Shown here one piece after another: positions 2,974 through 57,057 of a stretch of 64,000 bases of DNA. A program made the position numbers and the translations under genes. The notes beneath the pieces were generated by a model. The model ran no database searches, was not told the DNA's origin, and worked only from the letters and a program-made list of their open reading frames with translations. The first letter of the stretch is position 1. Every line of letters begins with the position of its first letter. The stretch comes from Bacillus sp. AFS059628 (lineage in GTDB: Bacteria; Bacillota; Bacilli; Bacillales; Bacillaceae_G): contig NZ_NVEC01000003.1 in assembly GCF_002571225.1 (NCBI RefSeq), forward strand, positions 169,135 to 233,134, given 5' to 3'.

Positions 2974-3873
2974 ATGAAGTTAGAACACTTAATTGATCAA
3001 GCGGCAGGCCAGCCTAAAAAAACTGTGGCTGTAGCAGTAGCTGAAGATCATGAAGTAATTGAAGCTGTAGCAAAAGCAATTACATTACAGCTAGCTCAAT
3101 TTCGTCTATATGGAAACCAAGAAAAAATAATGGGGATGTTACAAGAACATAGTTTACAAACTTCAGAACATATCGAAGTAATTGCAGTACAGTCAAGTGC
3201 TGAGGCTGCAGAACTTTCTGTGAAAGCTGTAAGAAATGGCGAAGCAGATGTGCTCATGAAGGGAAACATCCCAACAGCAAATATTTTGAAAGCTGTATTA
3301 AATAAAGAGTGGGGACTTCGTAAAGGTAGCGTACTTTCACACGTTGCAGCATTTGAAGTTCCAAATTACGATCGTCTCATTTTTGTTACAGATGCAGCGA
3401 TGAACATTGCACCTGATGTAACACAGAAAGCTGCTATTATACAGAATACTGTAGAAGTTGCCCGGGCAATAGGAATTGATTTGCCAAAGGTAGCACCAAT
3501 TGCAGCAGTAGAGGTTGTGAATCCTGCGATGCAAGCGACAATTGATGCAGCGATGTTAACTCAAATGAATCGCCGCGGACAAATTAAAAATTGTGTCGTT
3601 GATGGACCACTTGCTTTAGATAATGCAGTATCACAAATTGCAGCAGAACATAAAGGCATAGTAAGTGATGTAGCAGGTAAGGCAGACATTTTACTCGTCC
3701 CAACGATTGAAGCTGGAAATGTGCTATATAAATCACTCGTATACTTTGCGGATGCAAAAGTAGGAGCAATGATTGCTGGCGCAAAAGCACCGATTGTTTT
3801 AACATCTCGTGCTGATTCAGCAGAAACAAAAGTATATTCATTAGCATTGGCAGTTGCGACTGCTTCAAAATAA
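2974..3873 (+). CDS. ptb: Phosphate butyryltransferase
   Basis: This 299-residue enzyme exchanges CoA for phosphate on butyryl-CoA and branched acyl-CoAs, giving acyl phosphate for the kinase Buk. The length and the segments V-L-M-K-G-N-I-P-T near residue 95 and V-T-D-A-A-M-N near 139 are typical of the phosphate acetyl/butyryltransferase family. It is the first gene after the sigma-54 promoter and is followed by bcd, the B. subtilis order. The ribosome site GGAAAGGG is somewhat far from the ATG, about 12 bases, so initiation may be weaker than for the following genes. It is cytosolic. Confidence 0.93.
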   Translation: MKLEHLIDQAAGQPKKTVAVAVAEDHEVIEAVAKAITLQLAQFRLYGNQEKIMGMLQEHSLQTSEHIEVIAVQSSAEAAELSVKAVRNGEADVLMKGNIPTANILKAVLNKEWGLRKGSVLSHVAAFEVPNYDRLIFVTDAAMNIAPDVTQKAAIIQNTVEVARAIGIDLPKVAPIAAVEVVNPAMQATIDAAMLTQMNRRGQIKNCVVDGPLALDNAVSQIAAEHKGIVSDVAGKADILLVPTIEAGNVLYKSLVYFADAKVGAMIAGAKAPIVLTSRADSAETKVYSLALAVATASK

Positions 3874-3908: not shown

Positions 3909-5009
3909 ATGACATTAGAAATCTTCGAATACTTAGAAAAATATGATTATGAGCAAGTAGTATTTTGTCAAGATAAAGAATCTGGTTTAAAAGCAATCAT
4001 TGCAATTCATGATACAACACTTGGACCAGCTCTTGGTGGAACAAGAATGTGGACATATGATTCTGAAGAAGCGGCGATTGAAGATGCATTGCGTCTTGCA
4101 AAAGGGATGACATACAAAAACGCAGCAGCTGGTTTAAACTTAGGTGGTGCGAAAACAGTAATTATCGGTGATCCACGTAAAGATAAGAGCGAAGCGATGT
4201 TCCGTGCATTAGGACGTTACATTCAAGGACTAAACGGACGTTACATTACAGCTGAAGATGTTGGTACAACAGTAGATGATATGGATATTATCCACGAAGA
4301 AACTGACTTTGTAACAGGTATTTCACCATCATTCGGTTCTTCTGGTAACCCATCTCCAGTAACTGCATACGGTGTGTATCGTGGTATGAAAGCTGCTGCG
4401 AAAGAGGCTTTCGGTACTGATAATTTAGAAGGAAAAGTAATTGCTGTTCAAGGTGTTGGTAACGTAGCATATCACCTATGCAAACATTTACACGCTGAAG
4501 GAGCAAAACTAATCGTTACAGATATTAATAAAGAAGCTGTACAACGTGCAGTAGAAGAATTCGGTGCAACAGCAGTTGAGCCAAATGAAATTTACGGTGT
4601 TGAATGTGATATTTACGCACCATGTGCATTAGGCGCAACAGTTAATGACGAAACTATCCCACAACTTAAAGCAAAAGTAATCGCTGGTTCTGCAAATAAC
4701 CAATTAAAAGAAGATCGTCACGGCGACATCATTCATGAAATGGGTATCGTATACGCACCAGATTATGTAATTAATGCAGGTGGCGTAATTAACGTAGCAG
4801 ACGAGTTATATGGATACAATAGAGAACGTGCATTAAAACGCGTTGAGTCAATTTATGACACAATTGCAAAAGTAATCGAAATTTCAAAACGCGATGGCAT
4901 TGCAACTTATGTAGCAGCTGATCGTCTAGCTGAAGAGCGCATTGCAAGCTTGAAAAACTCTCGTAGCACATACTTACGCAACGGTCACGACATTATTAGC
5001 CGTCGCTAA
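3909..5009 (+). CDS. bcd: Leucine dehydrogenase
   Basis: NAD-dependent deaminase of leucine, isoleucine and valine, 366 residues, supplying the keto acids used by the Bkd complex. The glycine-rich active-site region at about residues 70-82 contains K70 and K82 around N-L-G-G-A. The Rossmann fold shows G-V-G-N-V-A near 181, and the C-terminal half carries N-N-Q-L and N-A-G-G. It starts with ATG after an AGGGGG site and lies 35 bases after ptb in the same transcript. The length equals that of known Bacillus leucine dehydrogenases. Confidence 0.95.
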
Positions 5010-13849: not shown

Positions 13850-13860
13850 TAATAGTGAAA

Positions 13861-13970
13861 GAACTACAAAAACACAGTTCTGGTTGGTAGTCCAGACGCA
13901 TGATTTCATGTTAGTAACCTTCCCCTCCGGGATGTCCCGTATTTCTAATTTTATAAAGGAGGGGCTGTCA
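13861..13970 (+). ncRNA. yjdF-motif riboswitch
   Basis: The leader directly before yjdF folds into GAACT/AGTTC (13861-13865 with 13876-13880) and TCTGG/CCAGA (13879-13883 with 13892-13896), followed by conserved-looking GGTTGGTAGTCC and GTTAGTAACCTTC segments. A CGGG/CCCG hairpin lies at 13928-13939. CCCCTCC at 13922-13928 is complementary to the yjdF ribosome site GGAGGGG at 13958-13964, giving a direct translation switch. The yjdF motif is an established Firmicute riboswitch that binds azaaromatic compounds. The identity was judged from gene context and layout, without a covariance model. Confidence 0.8.
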
Positions 13971-16662: not shown

Positions 16663-17377
16663 AATTGAAAACCTTCATAAATCATTTGGTAAAAACGAAG
16701 TATTAAAAGGAATTACAACAACGATTGAAAAAGGGGAAGTAGTCGCAATTATAGGGCCTTCTGGATCAGGAAAATCAACATTTTTACGTTGTATGAATAT
16801 GTTAGAAGCACCAACGGATGGTCACATTTGGATTGGAACGGAAGAAGTAACGAATCCGAAAACGAATGTTATGCATGTTCGTGAAAATGTCGGTATGGTC
16901 TTTCAACATTTCCACTTATTTCCTCATATGACTGTATTAGAAAATATTACGTATGCTCCTATCAATGTAAAAGGGGTAATGAAGCAAGAAGCTGAAAAGA
17001 AAGCTGAGAAACTTTTAGAAAAGGTTGGATTAGTAGATAAAAAAGATACGTATCCAAATCGTCTTTCGGGAGGACAAAAGCAACGTGTAGCAATTGCAAG
17101 AGCGTTAGCAATGGAACCGGAAGTTATGTTATTTGATGAACCGACATCGGCGCTAGATCCAGAGATGGTGAAAGAAGTGTTAGAAGTTATGAAATCGTTA
17201 GTTACGACAGGAATGACGATGGCTATCGTTACACATGAAATGGGCTTTGCAAAAGAAGTGGCAGATCGTGTTCTTTTCTTGGACGGAGGAAAGCTTGTAG
17301 AAGATAGTGCGCCAGAAGAATTTTTTGCAGCGCCGAAAAGTGAACGTGCGCAACAATTTTTACAAAAAATATTGTAA
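16655..17377 (+). CDS. artR: Amino-acid ABC transporter ATP-binding protein (arginine type)
   Basis: ATPase of 240 residues that drives ArtPQ. Walker A is G-P-S-G-S-G-K-S-T at 34-42, the signature is L-S-G-G-Q-K-Q-R near 139, Walker B is V-M-L-F-D-E-P-T near 158, and the switch histidine is in V-T-H-E-M-G, all typical of polar amino-acid importers. It starts with GTG overlapping the end of artQ, so translation is probably coupled. A terminator follows 30 bases after the stop. Confidence 0.93.
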
Positions 17378-26872: not shown

Positions 26873-26954
26873 GAATTCGCAGTTAAAAGAGTCCGTAACA
26901 AATACTGTTAGTAAACATAGATAAAAACAGTTTTTGTGTATGTCAAAATATGTG

Positions 26955-27115
26955 CACCTCTCCCTCGTTGAGTTTTAGCACTGTATAGCATAGGTACTGA
27001 AACCAGCTACGTTAAAAAAGGCCTTCATTCCGACCTTTCCTGTTGACCCATTGGCGTCTCTCGACATTTTTGGGCAGCAGCGTTTCTCTATACAGGAGCC
27101 TCACCTAACAGAGAC
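26955..27115 (-). ncRNA. M-box (ykoK) magnesium riboswitch
   Basis: Read on the minus strand, the leader contains the core M-box segments GTTAGGTGAGGCTCC, GCTGCTGCCCAAAAA, GTCGAGAGACGCCAATGGG-TCAACAG and CAGTGCTAAAACTC in the right order. The M-box is an established Mg2+-sensing riboswitch that ends transcription of Mg2+ transporter genes when the ion is plentiful. The downstream gene mgtA fits this exactly. Confidence 0.96.
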
Positions 27116-27135
27116 CATATTCAATTACATGTTGA

Positions 27136-42022: not shown

Positions 42023-44323
42023 GTGAAAAAGTCAAAAAAAATGCTAGCTGGAGCAACTCTTGCTATTGGTGTTATAGCGCCGCAAGTATTGCCAGCAACA
42101 GCTCATGCGGATGAGCAAACTGGGGAGAGTACGGTTAACTTACGAATTCTAGAAACATCAGATATTCACGTTAATTTAATGAATTACGATTATTATCAAA
42201 CGAAAACCGATAATAAAGTAGGTCTCGTACAAACAGCAACACTTGTTAATAAAGCACGTGAAGAAGCGAAGAACTCTGTCCTATTTGATGATGGGGATGC
42301 ATTACAAGGGACACCGCTTGGAGATTATGTAGCCAATAAAATAAATGATCCGAAGAAGCCTGTGGATCCTAGTTATACACATCCATTGTATCGTTTAATG
42401 AATTTAATGAAGTATGACGTCATCTCTCTTGGGAATCATGAATTTAACTACGGTTTAGACTATTTAAACAAAGTAATTAGTAAAACGGAATTCCCGGTTA
42501 TTAACTCGAACGTCTATAAAGATGATAAAGATAATAATGAAGAGAACGATCAAAATTACTTTAAACCATATCATGTTTTTGAAAAAGAAGTAGAAGATGA
42601 ATCAGGTCAAAAGCAAAAAGTGAAAATTGGCGTAATGGGATTTGTTCCACCTCAAGTTATGAACTGGGATAAAGCAAATTTAGAAGGAAAAGTGAAAGCA
42701 AAAGATATAGTTGAAACAGCGAAAAAAATGGTGCCAAAAATGAAAGCAGAAGGTGCAGATGTTATCGTTGCACTAGCACATTCCGGTGTTGATAAGAGTG
42801 GATACAACGTTGGCATGGAAAATGCGTCGTATTATTTAACAGAAGTTCCTGGTGTAGATGCAGTATTAATGGGACATTCACATACGGAAGTGAAGGATGT
42901 ATTTAATGGTGTTCCAGTTGTAATGCCTGGTGTCTTTGGAAGTAACTTAGGCATTATTGATATGCAATTGAAAAAAGTAAATGGAAAATGGGAAATACAA
43001 AAAGAGCAATCGAAGCCGCAACTTCGTCCGATTGCTGATAGTAAAGGAAACCCACTCGTACAATCTGATCAAAATTTAGTTGATGAAATTAAAGATGATC
43101 ATCAAGCGACAATTGATTATGTGAATACAGCTGTAGGAAAAACGACAGCGCCAATTAATAGTTATTTCTCATTAGTACAAGATGATCCTTCTGTACAACT
43201 TGTGACAAATGCACAAAAATGGTATGTAGAAAAGTTATTTGCTGAAAATGGACAGTACAGCAAATATAAAGGAATTCCAGTTTTATCTGCAGGAGCACCA
43301 TTTAAAGCAGGTGGCCGAAACGGTGCTACATATTATACGGATATTCCAGCTGGAACGTTAGCAATTAAAAACGTAGCAGATTTATATGTATATCCAAATA
43401 CGTTATATGCTGTAAAAGTAAATGGGGCACAAGTGAAAGAATGGCTTGAAATGTCTGCAGGTCAGTTTAATCAAATCGATCCAAAGAAAACAGAAGAACA
43501 GCCGTTAGTAAATATAGGCTATCCTACATATAACTTCGATATTTTAGATGGCTTAAAATACGAAATTGATGTAACACAACCAGCGAAATACGATAAAGAT
43601 GGAAAAGTTGTAAATGCAAATACGAATCGTATTGTAAATATGACATATGAAGGGAAGCCAGTAGCTGAAAATCAAGAGTTCATCGTCGCTACAAATAACT
43701 ATCGCGGAAGCAGCCAAACGTTCCCGGGTGTAAGCAAAGGGGAAGTTGTATACCAATCACAAGATGAAACGCGTCAAATCATTGTGAAGTATATGCAAGA
43801 AACACCAGTTATTAATCCAGCAGCAGATAAAAATTGGCTGTTCAAACCGATTGTTGCCGATAAATTACATACAACATTCGATTCTTCACCAAATGCACAA
43901 AAGTATATAAAGAAAGATGGAAAAATATCATATGTTGGACCATCTGAAAATGAATTTGCTAAATATGCAATTGATATAACGAAGAAGAACGATGATGATA
44001 AGGAAACTGGTGGGGAGAACCCAACAACACCACCAACAGGTGAAGGAAATAATGGAGGAAATCCGACGACACCACCAACAGGTGAAGGGAATAACGGAGA
44101 GAACCCAACGACACCACCAAAAGATGAAGGTAATAATGCAGGATCTGGACAAACTACAACGGATAATCAAAACGCAAAAGAAACAACAACTGTAAGCGAA
44201 AAGAAAGAAGAACGTGATTTACCGAAAACAGGTACAAGTGTTGTTTCTACAATTGGAGCAGGTTTGGCGTTTGTTGGAGCAGGATTACTTCTGTTATTTA
44301 GAAGAAAGAAAGCAAATAGATAG
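42023..44323 (+). CDS. Cell-wall-anchored 2',3'-cyclic-nucleotide phosphodiesterase / 5'-nucleotidase
   Basis: A 766-residue surface enzyme. Signal peptide about 1-29 with A-H-A before D-E. Metallophosphatase motifs: E-T-S-D-I-H-V-N, D-D-G-D-A-L-Q-G, L-G-N-H-E-F-N and G-H-S-H-T-E. The 5'-nucleotidase C-terminal domain spans about 370-600. Three 14-residue repeats, E/G-N-P-T-T-P-P-T/K, lead to the sorting signal L733-P-K-T-G, a hydrophobic segment and a basic tail. The start is GTG after AGGGGGA. It probably releases phosphate and nucleosides from external nucleotides; removal of extracellular nucleotides can also affect hosts. Another family member begins to appear at the right end of the window. 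Confidence 0.93.
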   Translation: MKKSKKMLAGATLAIGVIAPQVLPATAHADEQTGESTVNLRILETSDIHVNLMNYDYYQTKTDNKVGLVQTATLVNKAREEAKNSVLFDDGDALQGTPLGDYVANKINDPKKPVDPSYTHPLYRLMNLMKYDVISLGNHEFNYGLDYLNKVISKTEFPVINSNVYKDDKDNNEENDQNYFKPYHVFEKEVEDESGQKQKVKIGVMGFVPPQVMNWDKANLEGKVKAKDIVETAKKMVPKMKAEGADVIVALAHSGVDKSGYNVGMENASYYLTEVPGVDAVLMGHSHTEVKDVFNGVPVVMPGVFGSNLGIIDMQLKKVNGKWEIQKEQSKPQLRPIADSKGNPLVQSDQNLVDEIKDDHQATIDYVNTAVGKTTAPINSYFSLVQDDPSVQLVTNAQKWYVEKLFAENGQYSKYKGIPVLSAGAPFKAGGRNGATYYTDIPAGTLAIKNVADLYVYPNTLYAVKVNGAQVKEWLEMSAGQFNQIDPKKTEEQPLVNIGYPTYNFDILDGLKYEIDVTQPAKYDKDGKVVNANTNRIVNMTYEGKPVAENQEFIVATNNYRGSSQTFPGVSKGEVVYQSQDETRQIIVKYMQETPVINPAADKNWLFKPIVADKLHTTFDSSPNAQKYIKKDGKISYVGPSENEFAKYAIDITKKNDDDKETGGENPTTPPTGEGNNGGNPTTPPTGEGNNGENPTTPPKDEGNNAGSGQTTTDNQNAKETTTVSEKKEERDLPKTGTSVVSTIGAGLAFVGAGLLLLFRRKKANR
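44015..44140 (+). repeat. Three tandem 42-bp repeats in the wall-spanning linker
   Basis: Three 14-codon units encode N-P-T-T-P-P plus a Gly/Asn/Glu-rich part just before the LPKTG signal. Such repeats commonly vary in number between strains. Confidence 0.85.
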
Positions 44324-44372: not shown

Positions 44373-45746
44373 TTATGAAAGTGTTACAGCTTTTTCTTTC
44401 TTCCATGAAAGGCCAAATCCAGTGAAACCAACAATAATTGTTAAGACTGGGCAAGCTAAACAGAAAATTGCGAATGGAAGGTAATCAAATGTCGGAACGC
44501 CAAGGACGTTCGATAAGAATACACCACTTACTCCCCATGGTACGAGCGGATTAATAACTGTACCTGCATCTTCTAGTACTCGTGATAAATTCCGACGTTC
44601 TAAACCGACTTCATCGTATTTATTAGCAAATGCTTGTCCTGTTAAAACGATGGATAAGTATTGCTCACCAAGTAAGAAGTTTACACCAATTGCAGTTGAA
44701 GCAGTAGAAATAATTAAGCGTGTACTATTTTTTACGAAGCTAGAGATGATATTCATCAGCTGCGCGATAATACCCATTCCTTGTAATAATCCTCCCATAC
44801 AAAGAGCTAGGAAAATAAGCGCAATCGACATCATCATACTTTGTAGACCACCGCGAGATAGTAAGCTATCAATGTCTTTAATACCAGTTTTAGAAACATA
44901 GCCGTCTTGCATAATTTTCATTAAATCAGCTAAAGAAGTGCTAGGTTTAAAAATAAAGAGAATAATAATTCCTACCACGATTCCTGCAAGCAATGTTGGA
45001 ACTGCTGGAACTTTTTTAAATGCGAATAGGAACAGTAATAAAATTGGGATTAGTGTAACGATAGAAATCGTTGTATTTTTCTCTAATGTACTAATAAAGT
45101 TTGTGAAGTCAACGTCTCCGCTAGTGCCGCCTCCTAAAATGAAAAATGCGATAAAAGCAATAATGAAGGCTGGAACTGTTGTCCAAAGCATGTTACGAAT
45201 GTGCTCAAATAAATCTACACCCGTTACAGCAGGAGCTAAGTTTGTTGTATCAGATAAAGGAGACATTTTATCTCCAAAGAACGCACCAGAAATAATTGCA
45301 CCAGCAATTAGAGCCGGATCGTATCCGAGAGCACTACCCATGCCCATAAAGGCAAGTCCTACAGTTGCAGCAGTTGTAAAGGCACTACCGATACTCGTTC
45401 CAACAATTGCACAAACAACGAAAACAGTTGGAATGAAAATTTTAGGAGATACAAGTTGGAAGCCGTATACCATTAAAGTTGGGATTGTTCCAGCGGCGAT
45501 CCAAACACTAATTAATACGCCTACAAGTAAGAAAATAAAAATAGATGGAATACCAGCTGAAATACTACTAATCATCCCTTTTTCCATCGTAGACCAATCA
45601 ATTTTTTTCATAAATCCAAATGCTAATAAAAGAACGATGCCAAATAAAATTGGGATGTGTGGTGAAACTTCTAGTTGAATAACACTAAAGCCAATACAGA
45701 AAAAGATAAATACTGTTAAAAGAACAGATTCAATTTTTGAAACCAT
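44373..45746 (-). CDS. nhaC: NhaC-family Na+/H+ antiporter (possible tyrosine-linked transporter)
   Basis: A 457-residue membrane protein with about eleven hydrophobic segments. Features of NhaC are T-S-I-G-S-A-F-T-T-A-A-T near 115-126, S-G-A-F-F-G-D-K-M-S-P-L-S-D-T-T-N near 154-170 and the C-terminal N-P-L-V-P-W-G. AGGAGGGG precedes the ATG. The leader is a T-box, a tRNA-sensing control normally found before amino-acid genes, with a reading that suggests tRNA-Tyr. That implies transport of an amino acid, perhaps tyrosine with Na+ or H+, rather than simple ion exchange. This inference rests on the leader only. Confidence 0.85.
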   Translation of the reverse strand: MVSKIESVLLTVFIFFCIGFSVIQLEVSPHIPILFGIVLLLAFGFMKKIDWSTMEKGMISSISAGIPSIFIFLLVGVLISVWIAAGTIPTLMVYGFQLVSPKIFIPTVFVVCAIVGTSIGSAFTTAATVGLAFMGMGSALGYDPALIAGAIISGAFFGDKMSPLSDTTNLAPAVTGVDLFEHIRNMLWTTVPAFIIAFIAFFILGGGTSGDVDFTNFISTLEKNTTISIVTLIPILLLFLFAFKKVPAVPTLLAGIVVGIIILFIFKPSTSLADLMKIMQDGYVSKTGIKDIDSLLSRGGLQSMMMSIALIFLALCMGGLLQGMGIIAQLMNIISSFVKNSTRLIISTASTAIGVNFLLGEQYLSIVLTGQAFANKYDEVGLERRNLSRVLEDAGTVINPLVPWGVSGVFLSNVLGVPTFDYLPFAIFCLACPVLTIIVGFTGFGLSWKKEKAVTLS

Positions 45747-45889
45747 TGTTTTCCCCTCCTAAGTAATCTAAAATAGCTCTTTTTTATATAAAATTCGCCA
45801 ATATTGTTTATTTCCTTCTAAAATTTAGAATTTTGTGACAAATTACCGGTAATTATTGGTTTTTCAATATGATACGGAAATGATTGGAT

Positions 45890-45945
45890 AAAAAAACGTC
45901 CCTGCATATAATTATGCAGGGACGAAGAAATCGCGGTACCACCCT
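45890..45945 (-). promoter_or_regulatory. Second T-box antiterminator/terminator module
   Basis: Minus strand: AGGGTGGTACCGCG (45945-45932) followed by a perfect 12-bp terminator, CGTCCCTGCATA with its complement (45924-45897), and a T-run. A small stem TTGTGA/TCACAA at 45949-45970 precedes it. No second specifier stem is present between the two modules. Confidence 0.85.
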
Positions 45946-46002
45946 AGCTTGTGAAATGAATGTATCACAAAATAAAGGGTCGTATGATATGCGCTAATAA
46001 AA

Positions 46003-46235
46003 TAAAAACGCCCCTGCAATATATGCAGGGACGAAAAATTCGCGGTACCACCCTAAATTGTGAAACAGTATCGTTTCACCACTCTTTAGATATAACGGTC
46101 TATAACCGTCTTTCACTACTCCTTACGTTTCGCAAAAGAAGCTCCAGGGGGTAATTCATAATTCGCTCTGTACTGGTTCGCACCGACCACCAGCTCTCTG
46201 AAATCAGAAATCGAAATACTACTAAATCCTATCAA
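46003..46235 (-). ncRNA. T-box leader, first full unit, of nhaC
   Basis: On the minus strand, a long Stem I region (46235 to about 46140) contains AGAGAGCTGGTGGTCGGTGCGAACCAG-type T-box features in order, then a specifier-loop segment GAATTACCCCCTGGAGC. A stem GTGAAAC/GTTTCAC (46079-46060), the T-box AGGGTGGTACCGCG (46054-46041) and a terminator (46033-46009 with T-run to 46004) follow. The specifier is best read as TAC (complement of 46151-46153), i.e. tyrosine; the alternative frame TTA (Leu) cannot be excluded by eye. Confidence 0.9.
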
Positions 46236-46385
46236 TGCCGATTCATATGATGTTAGTTAAATTTTTATCATATATTCGTCTTACATGTCAATAAAAATAT
46301 TCAATAATTTTTTAGGGGAATAAAGGAGAACAATTTTAATCCTGTGAAAATGTGCGTTATAATGAATTTGAAAGGGGAGGAAAGA

Positions 46386-46712
46386 GTGAAGAAAAAAATA
46401 ATTCTTTTTACCACTTTACTAGTCATTGGCGGAAGTGCTGGAATTTACACGGCTTTTGCAGCTGAATCAGAGCAGGCGAAGCAAAAGCAAGTACAGCAGT
46501 CAGAAGTGAAGAAATCGAAAGAAGCTAAAGAGAAGAAGTCGATGGAAAAAGCAGCTGAGAAACTAGGGGTTTCTACGAAAGGGAAAACAAAAGAAGAGGT
46601 TGCGAAAGAAGTAAATACCGCAAGATTTGAGAAGCGCCATGATCTGTTGATTGAACATGCAAAACAACTTGGAATTGAAACAGAAGGAAAAAAGATGAAG
46701 AGATTATTTTAG
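46386..46712 (+). pseudogene. Small secreted Lys/Glu-rich protein, frameshifted near its end
   Basis: GTG start at 46386 after GGGGAGGAAAG; 108 residues as read. A signal peptide (1-24, ending A-F-A) precedes a Lys/Glu/Gln-rich helical region with two similar segments, L-G-V-S-T-K-G-K-T-K-E-E and L-G-I-E-T-E-G-K. After the second, a run of six A (46688-46693) shifts the frame and the protein ends M-K-R-L-F. With one more A the frame would continue D-E-E-I-I-L-E-I-G-K and stop at 46741, which matches the repeat pattern and the relative at 52826. The gene is probably damaged at its end, or the base is a sequencing slip. Function unknown. Confidence 0.6.
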
Positions 46713-56653: not shown

Positions 56654-56904
56654 GGGAGACGTGATTTCTAGAAATATAGTTCGAATACGAAAGTATAGGA
56701 AAGAAACCTAACGATGATTGATATTTTGGCATAAGGAAAAAACCTAGCAAAATATCGAATTTTTCAAACGCTAGTCGTATCTTTTTATTCCAGTATAGAA
56801 ACATAAGTATACAAAATAAAACATATATAAAGATTCAAAATGAAACTTTAAAAATATGCATACTGAAATAAAAGTGTATTCGCTATATAAAATTACTAGA
56901 AAAC
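56654..56904 (-). other. Leader spacer between the FMN aptamer and its terminator
   Basis: About 250 bases of AT-rich leader without a gene. This is longer than usual between aptamer and terminator; an antiterminator partner may lie here, but I could not single one out. Confidence 0.4.
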
Positions 56905-57046
56905 ATATCCTTCTCCCATCCAGACTATACTGTCGGCCCTAGAGTTTCACTAGATCCACCGTTTTCGAGTTGAAAACGGGTCACGGACTTAGAAGTTTGC
57001 ACTTCATCACCGCCGGTTGGGAATTTCACCCGACCCCGAAGGATGT
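56905..57046 (-). ncRNA. FMN riboswitch (RFN element)
   Basis: On the minus strand the segments ATCCTTCGGGG-TCGGGTG, AATTCCCAACCGGCGGTGATGAAG, GTCCGTGACCC and GGTGGATCTAGTGAAACTCTAGGGCCGACAGTATAGTCTGGATGGGAGAAGGAT occur in RFN order. This riboswitch is an established FMN sensor before rib genes and stops their expression when FMN is plentiful. Confidence 0.97.
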
Positions 57047-57057
57047 TGTTTGCTCAA

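What the first reader, a model, noticed from the sequence alone, without database searches (positions are those of the whole stretch)
45890..46235. T-box leader of nhaC with a duplicated antiterminator/terminator module but a single specifier stem
Two copies of AGGGTGGTACCGCG, each preceded by a small stem and followed by a CGTCCCTGCA-type terminator, lie in a row on the minus strand. Only about 35 bases lie between the first terminator's T-run and the second module's stem, too few for a second Stem I. One tRNA bound to the single Stem I would have to act on two terminators, or the second terminator is decided by the tRNA acceptor end alone. Two gates in series should give tighter control. T-boxes as a class and partial duplications are known; this arrangement before an antiporter, with a reading of tRNA-Tyr, suggests a transporter for tyrosine.
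Basis: partly seen in the sequence, partly recalled or inferred. Interest (0 to 1): 0.7.

Follow-up and report, generated by a model that had tools for sequence, protein, structure and literature searches.

The report
One tRNA sensor, two transcription gates
The leader RNA of a bacterial transporter gene has one site that recognises tyrosine tRNA but two stop-or-go switches in a row; this arrangement is a known but unexplained variant, and comparison with relatives suggests that each switch is meant to be read by the tRNA, sometimes by borrowing a piece of the first.

Summary
On the minus strand before nhaC there is one complete T-box leader (46244-46024, Rfam 151 bits, specifier UAC = Tyr). 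It is followed by a second T-box sequence with its own small stem and a strong terminator (45971-45890), without Stem I. The class is known: a 2020 review names partially tandem T-boxes as having unknown modes of action. A Tyr T-box on nhaC in the Bacillus cereus group is in print since 2008. New here is the comparison. The three nearest nhaC relatives carry two or three complete T-boxes in series. The one-decoder, multi-gate form recurs in 66 further leaders, mostly with aromatic specifiers. The base that reads the tRNA discriminator agrees between gates in 65 of 67 leaders. In 26 of 55 gate pairs the segment before T-box 2 is complementary to the 5' half of the first Stem III, so the second gate may borrow that strand and one anchored tRNA may be handed on. 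The window's second gate has a local Stem III without the purine string; borrowing there is possible but at chance. Mechanism remains inference.

The parts
46264..46291 (-). promoter-like sequence: TTGACA 46291-46286, 16-base spacer, GATAAA 46269-46264
   Evidence: read by eye from the sequence; the scan lists no minus-strand promoter, and this one lacks the final T that the scan requires in the second hexamer
46024..46244 (-). complete T-box unit 1: Stem I, II, IIA/B, III, antiterminator
   Evidence: Rfam RF00230, 151.2 bits, model 1-219
46151..46153 (-). specifier codon UAC (Tyr)
   Evidence: Rfam alignment and alignment with both T-boxes of L001
46058..46084 (-). Stem III of gate 1, GUGAAAC/GUUUCAC, with 5' purine string GAGUG and 3' AA
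   Evidence: motif 5'-RRRxG-Stem III-AA-3' from PMC7583486 (passages)
46041..46054 (-). T-box sequence 1 AGGGTGGTACCGCG (UGGU)
45999..46033 (-). terminator 1 and T-run
45948..45971 (-). Stem III of gate 2, TTTGTGA/TCACAAG; no purine string on its 5' side; TTTCAC 45956-45951 could pair instead with GTGAAA 46079-46074
   Evidence: the alternative pairing is not better than chance
45932..45945 (-). T-box sequence 2 AGGGTGGTACCGCG (UGGU)
45890..45924 (-). terminator 2 and T-run
44373..45746 (-). nhaC, Na+/H+ antiporter family protein, 457 aa
   Evidence: NCBIfam TIGR00931 436.6 bits, cut-off 370; Pfam PF03553

Best explanation
It is a partially tandem tyrosine T-box: one decoder (Stem I with UAC, Stem II, IIA/B) followed by two gates in series, controlling nhaC as an AND gate. 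Shown by sequence: the parts and their order. Inferred: uncharged tRNA-Tyr is held by Stem I; its ACCA end first stabilises antiterminator 1, and after RNA polymerase passes, it is passed to antiterminator 2, so both terminators must be overcome by the same anchored tRNA. Charged tRNA lets either terminator form, which lowers leakage. Gate 2 either uses its own Stem III (the window's is weakly equipped) or takes over the 5' strand of the first Stem III with its purine string, as many relatives suggest.
For: Gate 2 keeps the T-box sequence and the strands of the antiterminator: UGGU, ACC, AGGG and CCCU. The base facing the tRNA discriminator agrees between gates in 48 of 49 leaders plus 17 of 18. 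It follows the specifier: by rule, U at every gate in 40 of 41 Phe and Tyr leaders and C at both in 14 of 16 Trp leaders, one of the two exceptions (L061) being misread by the rule. The antiterminator alone does not bind tRNA appreciably without Stem III (PMC7583486, passages); of 55 second gates, 14 have a clear local Stem III and 26 are significantly complementary to the first Stem III, 35 having one or both. The three nearest nhaC relatives keep two or three gates. A fully bound tRNA stays over 24 s, enough for more than 1000 bases of transcription (PMC6197855, passages; glyQS, not Tyr).
Against: No expression or binding data. Twenty of 55 second gates passed neither Stem III test. Agreement of the discriminator-facing base may partly be inheritance after duplication. 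The window's gate 2 lacks the purine string that the known discriminator uses, so it may sense charging poorly or not at all. Its pairing with the first Stem III is at chance (p 0.47). No leader known to be from the Bacillus cereus group was fetched, so conservation of the window's own gate 2 is untested.
Confidence: 0.5

Rival explanations
1. Fail-safe terminator. Terminator 2 only catches polymerases that leak past terminator 1; T-box 2 and Stem III 2 are relics of a lost second T-box and no tRNA reads them.
For: Window gate 2 lacks the purine string. The nearest relatives have full tandem T-boxes from which it could be a remnant. Terminator 2 is the stronger hairpin.
Against: With no way to open terminator 2 the gene would stay largely off under starvation. 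T-box 2 is intact in 13 of 13 close pairs from the protein-anchored search, and the discriminator-facing base agrees in 65 of 67; these are nearly all other leaders, not the window's own lineage.
Confidence: 0.2
2. Slaved second gate. When antiterminator 1 forms, the free 3' strand of terminator 1 captures the 5' strand of terminator 2 and opens gate 2 without further tRNA; leaked polymerases, in which terminator 1 is folded, meet a working terminator 2.
For: In the window this pairing is -18.9 kcal/mol, as strong as the strands of terminator 1 themselves and close to terminator 2, -20.4. In 12 of 49 pairs it is within 1 kcal/mol of terminator 2 or stronger.
Against: Not kept in the class: the cross pairing is weaker than terminator 1 by more than 2 kcal/mol in 31 of 49 pairs. 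It gives no reason to keep T-box 2 or Stem III 2.
Confidence: 0.15
3. Gate 2 is read by a second, free uncharged tRNA through its acceptor end alone, without a decoder, so gate 2 reports total uncharged A73 tRNAs rather than tyrosine.
For: Gate 2 has a Stem III of its own and UGGU.
Against: Its discriminator is incomplete, and binding of an acceptor end without Stem I is expected to be weak (established knowledge, not tested here).
Confidence: 0.1

Closest known systems
T-box riboswitch (Rfam RF00230), Tyr class such as tyrS
   Same: Unit 1 has all parts and scores 151 bits; UAC specifier, UGGU
   Different: An extra gate follows without decoder
Fully tandem T-boxes (trp and other operons, PMC12452182, passages; nhaC of L001, L011, L013 here)
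   Same: Two or more gates in series before one gene
   Different: There each gate has its own Stem I; here the second does not
Partially tandem T-boxes (named in PMC7583486 as of unknown mode of action, passage)
   Same: Incomplete second T-box unit, as the name implies; the passage gives no anatomy
   Different: The window's second gate has a local Stem III without the purine string; I found no other trait that sets it apart from the leaders collected here

Membership tests
T-box leader RF00230 (unit 1) | covariance model match over the gathering score | tested here: met
   151.2 bits, cut-off 93
T-box leader RF00230 (unit 1) | specifier, UGGN matching the discriminator base, competing terminator | tested here: met
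   UAC, UGGU, terminator 46033-46009; that tRNA-Tyr has A73 is recalled
T-box leader RF00230 (unit 1) | response to uncharged tRNA | not testable with these tools
   needs experiment
complete second T-box (full tandem) | own Stem I with specifier | tested here: not met
   only one Rfam match at the gathering score; 27 bases between T-run 1 and the second stem
partially tandem T-box | second antiterminator/terminator module without second Stem I | tested here: met
   the definition is inferred from the name used in PMC7583486
T-box discriminator (gate 2) | 5'-RRRxG-Stem III-AA-3' plus antiterminator | tested here: not met
   Stem III, AA and antiterminator present, RRRxG absent from the linker
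borrowed Stem III (exchange) class proposed here | segment before T-box 2 complementary to 5' half of the first Stem III beyond chance | tested here: not met
   window p 0.47; met at p <= 0.05 by 26 of 55 gate pairs

The most novel reading that the evidence does not exclude
Partially tandem T-boxes work by handover: the segment before the second T-box invades the first Stem III, in some leaders through its loop, displaces the first 3' strand, and rebuilds the discriminator beside the second T-box on the same anchored tRNA. One decoder can so operate two or three terminators in turn. In the window this would use GUGAAA (46079-46074) with UUUCAC (45956-45951), which would also supply the missing purine string.
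Probability: 0.3. Interest if true: 0.8.

Novelty: new member of a known kind. Interest (0 to 1): 0.52.

Why it matters
The review seen here lists how partially tandem T-boxes act as an open question (PMC7583486, passage). A set of 67 such leaders, with an agreement rule for the tRNA-reading base and a predicted base-paired exchange in many of them, makes that question testable by changing single helices. If handover is right, it is a natural case in which one bound ligand drives several transcription decisions in sequence.

Tried and rejected
A second Stem I in the window: rejected, one Rfam match only. A promoter between the gates on the minus strand: none listed. Cross-terminator capture as a general rule: rejected for the class, possible in the window. 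Borrowed Stem III in the window: tested, at chance. A first automatic Stem III finder misplaced the helix in several leaders (there 31 of 50 gates paired better with their own strand than with the median of others, Wilcoxon p 0.002). With longer pieces the contrast often vanished. Against other gene groups the mean z over 23 groups was -0.91, p 0.018, the window -1.1. The correlation between having a local stem and a borrowed one was not significant (Spearman p 0.19 and 0.10). Replication in a new set was modest: 4 of 18 at p <= 0.05 against shuffled segments and 3 of 18 against shuffled loops. All these p values ignore kinship between leaders.

Aromatic enrichment: a rule that looks only for Phe, Tyr and Trp codons reads 57 of 67 leaders and 31 of 69 other T-boxes. 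The background came from five genomes: 79 of their 100 RF00230 matches were taken, 6 could not be oriented and 4 first units of partial tandems were set apart. The 21 left out include three partial matches, two known partial-tandem units and at least five Tyr or Phe T-boxes already fetched as loci, so the background is somewhat too low in aromatics on that account, and too high because the rule has false positives. Leaders are related. The rule misread L061 as Trp (Phe by eye). Of the ten leaders that it left unread, L069, L080 and L234 look aromatic by eye and some of the rest could be Ser. So I claim enrichment, not exclusivity.

Dropped rows: L052, L053 and L067 and L243, L244 matched the pattern but are not T-boxes. 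L043 is the same leader as L041.

Full report
Observation. The minus strand before nhaC reads, in order: a promoter-like TTGACA (46291-46286, by eye), one complete T-box leader (46244-46024; RF00230, 151.2 bits) that runs into terminator 1 (46033-46009) with its T-run, a linker, a small stem (45971-45948), a second T-box sequence (45945-45932), terminator 2 (45924-45897) with its T-run, and nhaC (45746-44373; NCBIfam antiport_nhaC; Pfam PF03553). The two terminators are the only ones found in 45700-46400, with hairpins of -18.2 and -20.4 kcal/mol against -5.6 and -6.1 for the bare antiterminators. The linker from T-run 1 to the second stem is 27 bases, too short for a decoder. The finding is real.

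Specificity. The Rfam alignment puts UAC at the specifier (46153-46151). Both T-boxes of the closest named relative, Bacillus sp. 165 (L001), have UAC at the aligned place. Both T-boxes of the window are UGGU, which fits a tRNA with A73; that tRNA-Tyr has A73 is recalled. A tyrosine role for this transporter is already in print: Wels et al. 2008 give a Tyr T-box for the NhaC family protein BA4353 and list Tyr T-boxes on NhaC transporters of other Firmicutes (PMC2494555, passages read). That the window belongs to the Bacillus cereus group is inference; no genome is held for it.

Relatives of the gene. One scan of genome contigs gave ten NhaC loci, the best 64% identical. A search of 19 genomes of the family of Bacillus sp. 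165 gave three loci at 64-67% identity, one of them the same locus again. All three carry complete T-boxes in series: two in L001, two in L011 and three in L013. Of more distant NhaC loci, L006 and L009 have one T-box sequence and the other seven of the ten named loci show none by motif on the gene's strand; L014 has none. So a multi-gate leader is usual for the near relatives, and the window most simply looks like a tandem whose second Stem I and II were lost (inference).

How common the arrangement is. A pattern of GGGTGGNACC twice with a T-run between was searched in sets that partly overlap: 2 of 397 genomes of the order of G001, 9 of 398 of its class (one of them chance), 12 of 59 of the order of G680, 1 of 42 of the order of G532, 27 of 398 of the phylum (one chance), 21 of 154 of the class of G964 (two chance) and 4 of 26 of the class of G1051. 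After removing duplicates and chance matches there are 49 leaders with the window and 18 more, with 74-129 bases from motif to motif. One, L041, has three gates on one decoder before an SNF transporter. Downstream reading frames were located for 45 of the 48 other leaders of the first set, not all of them surely the regulated gene. Pfam on 20 of these gives DAHP synthase or chorismate mutase, anthranilate synthase component I, a glycosyl transferase family 3 enzyme, SNF and SSF symporters, ABC binding proteins of two families and AMP-binding enzymes. Specifiers are mostly aromatic: 57 of 67 by rule against 31 of 69 background T-boxes under the same over-generous rule (limits under Tried and rejected).

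Is gate 2 read by tRNA? Three comparative facts favour it. First, a search anchored on the DAHP synthase protein, not on the motif, gave 30 loci; 15 have a T-box motif, 13 of these have a second one within 160 bases, and all 13 second motifs are intact to 0-1 mismatches although up to 3 were allowed. Eight of the 13 were already in the pattern set and five were new. Second, the base of UGGN that faces the tRNA discriminator was left free in the pattern, yet agrees between the gates in 48 of 49 leaders and 17 of 18; the exceptions are L049 and L238. By rule it is U at every gate in 40 of 41 Phe and Tyr leaders and C at both gates in 14 of 16 Trp leaders. Inheritance after duplication explains part of this. 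Third, structure work has shown that the antiterminator alone does not bind tRNA appreciably without Stem III, which is flanked by purines, 5'-RRRxG-Stem III-AA-3' (PMC7583486, passages), and 35 of 55 second gates have a way to a Stem III by the tests below.

Own or borrowed Stem III. Of 55 gate pairs (50 from the pattern set and five from the protein search), 14 second gates have a clear local Stem III, and in 26 the segment before T-box 2 is complementary to the 5' strand and loop of the first Stem III at p <= 0.05 against dinucleotide shuffles; five have both and 20 neither. Complementarity to the 5' strand could be inherited, because the 3' strand was duplicated. Complementarity to the loop is not expected from that. 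When only the loop and the next three bases were shuffled, 11 of 55 stayed at p <= 0.05, where 2.75 would be expected for independent tests. Clear cases are L092, L127 and L079, with -21.8, -27.2 and -22.1 kcal/mol; some GC-rich leaders reach lower energies without passing the shuffle test, such as L077 and L078. In 18 new leaders the counts were 4 and 3, a modest replication. The purine string sits at the first Stem III in 45 of 55 pairs. At a local second stem it sits in 1 of 21 second gates of the borrowed-only kind, 6 of 9 of the local-only kind and 3 of 5 with both; some RRRNG lies somewhere in the linker of 8 of the 21. The 20 gates of neither kind were not tallied. A gate that borrows the 5' strand would borrow the purine string with it.

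The window in this picture. It falls in the local-only kind: its second Stem III is TTTGTGA/TCACAAG (p 0.02). But no RRRNG lies in the linker examined, so by the published definition gate 2 is an incomplete discriminator. GUGAAA of the first Stem III can pair with UUUCAC before T-box 2 and would bring GAGUG on its 5' side and AA on its 3' side, but the pairing is no better than chance (p 0.47) and competes with the first Stem III (-8.9 kcal/mol). I therefore report it as possible, not shown. L051, an SNF leader, is alike: a local stem without purine string, with a stronger exchange pairing (-11.8 kcal/mol, p 0.07).

Mechanism. I hold it most likely that one tRNA-Tyr, anchored on the single Stem I, acts on both gates in turn, giving an AND gate with low leakage. 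A measured lifetime of more than 24 s for a fully bound tRNA, long enough for more than 1000 bases of transcription (PMC6197855, passages, for glyQS), makes a second decision 109 bases later feasible. The same paper calls the second binding step close to irreversible, which speaks against an easy release from gate 1. Handover by strand exchange is the bolder form. The main rivals are a fail-safe terminator with a relic T-box, capture of terminator 2 by the free strand of terminator 1 (strong in the window at -18.9 kcal/mol, but weaker than terminator 1 itself by more than 2 kcal/mol in 31 of 49 pairs), and reading by a second free tRNA.

Novelty. [quoted passage not shown] A survey of contiguous riboswitches says that T-boxes tend to be arranged as complete tandem units (PMC12452182, passages; the word nhaC does not occur there). 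In nine searches of the held library (listings seen, and passages of five papers) I saw no description of this nhaC arrangement or of a borrowed Stem III. Two older comparative papers that may well treat it were not held, so priority is not established. The window is a new member of a known kind; the anatomical rule across the class is what may be new.

Noticed in passing
L041 / L043 (one leader, G019): A triple-gate leader: one complete T-box (Phe specifier) followed by two further T-box/terminator modules at 87 and 88 bases, before an SNF transporter.
   Followed up: partly
L013, minus strand 3043-3870; plus strand 3995-4109: Three complete T-boxes in a row before an nhaC relative, and a TPP riboswitch on the other strand nearby.
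   Followed up: no
window 26954-27119 (-), 56904-57047 (-), 13856-13955 (+): M-box, FMN and azaaromatic (yjdF) riboswitches in the same window.
   Followed up: no
window 42023-44323 (+): A 5'-nucleotidase-like protein with a cell wall anchor motif, convergent with nhaC.
   Followed up: no
window 46344-46712 (+): A small ORF divergent from the nhaC leader, 122 aa, no Pfam match at E 0.001.
   Followed up: no
L054: Besides two complete T-boxes and the extra gate on one strand, two more complete T-boxes lie on the opposite strand close by.
   Followed up: no
L049 and L238: The only two of 67 leaders in which the discriminator-facing base differs between the gates: C then U in L049, U then C in L238.
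   Followed up: no
G933, contig C26 near 16869-17217: A further partial tandem seen only as a fragmentary RF00230 match beside a full one; not in the set of 67.
   Followed up: no
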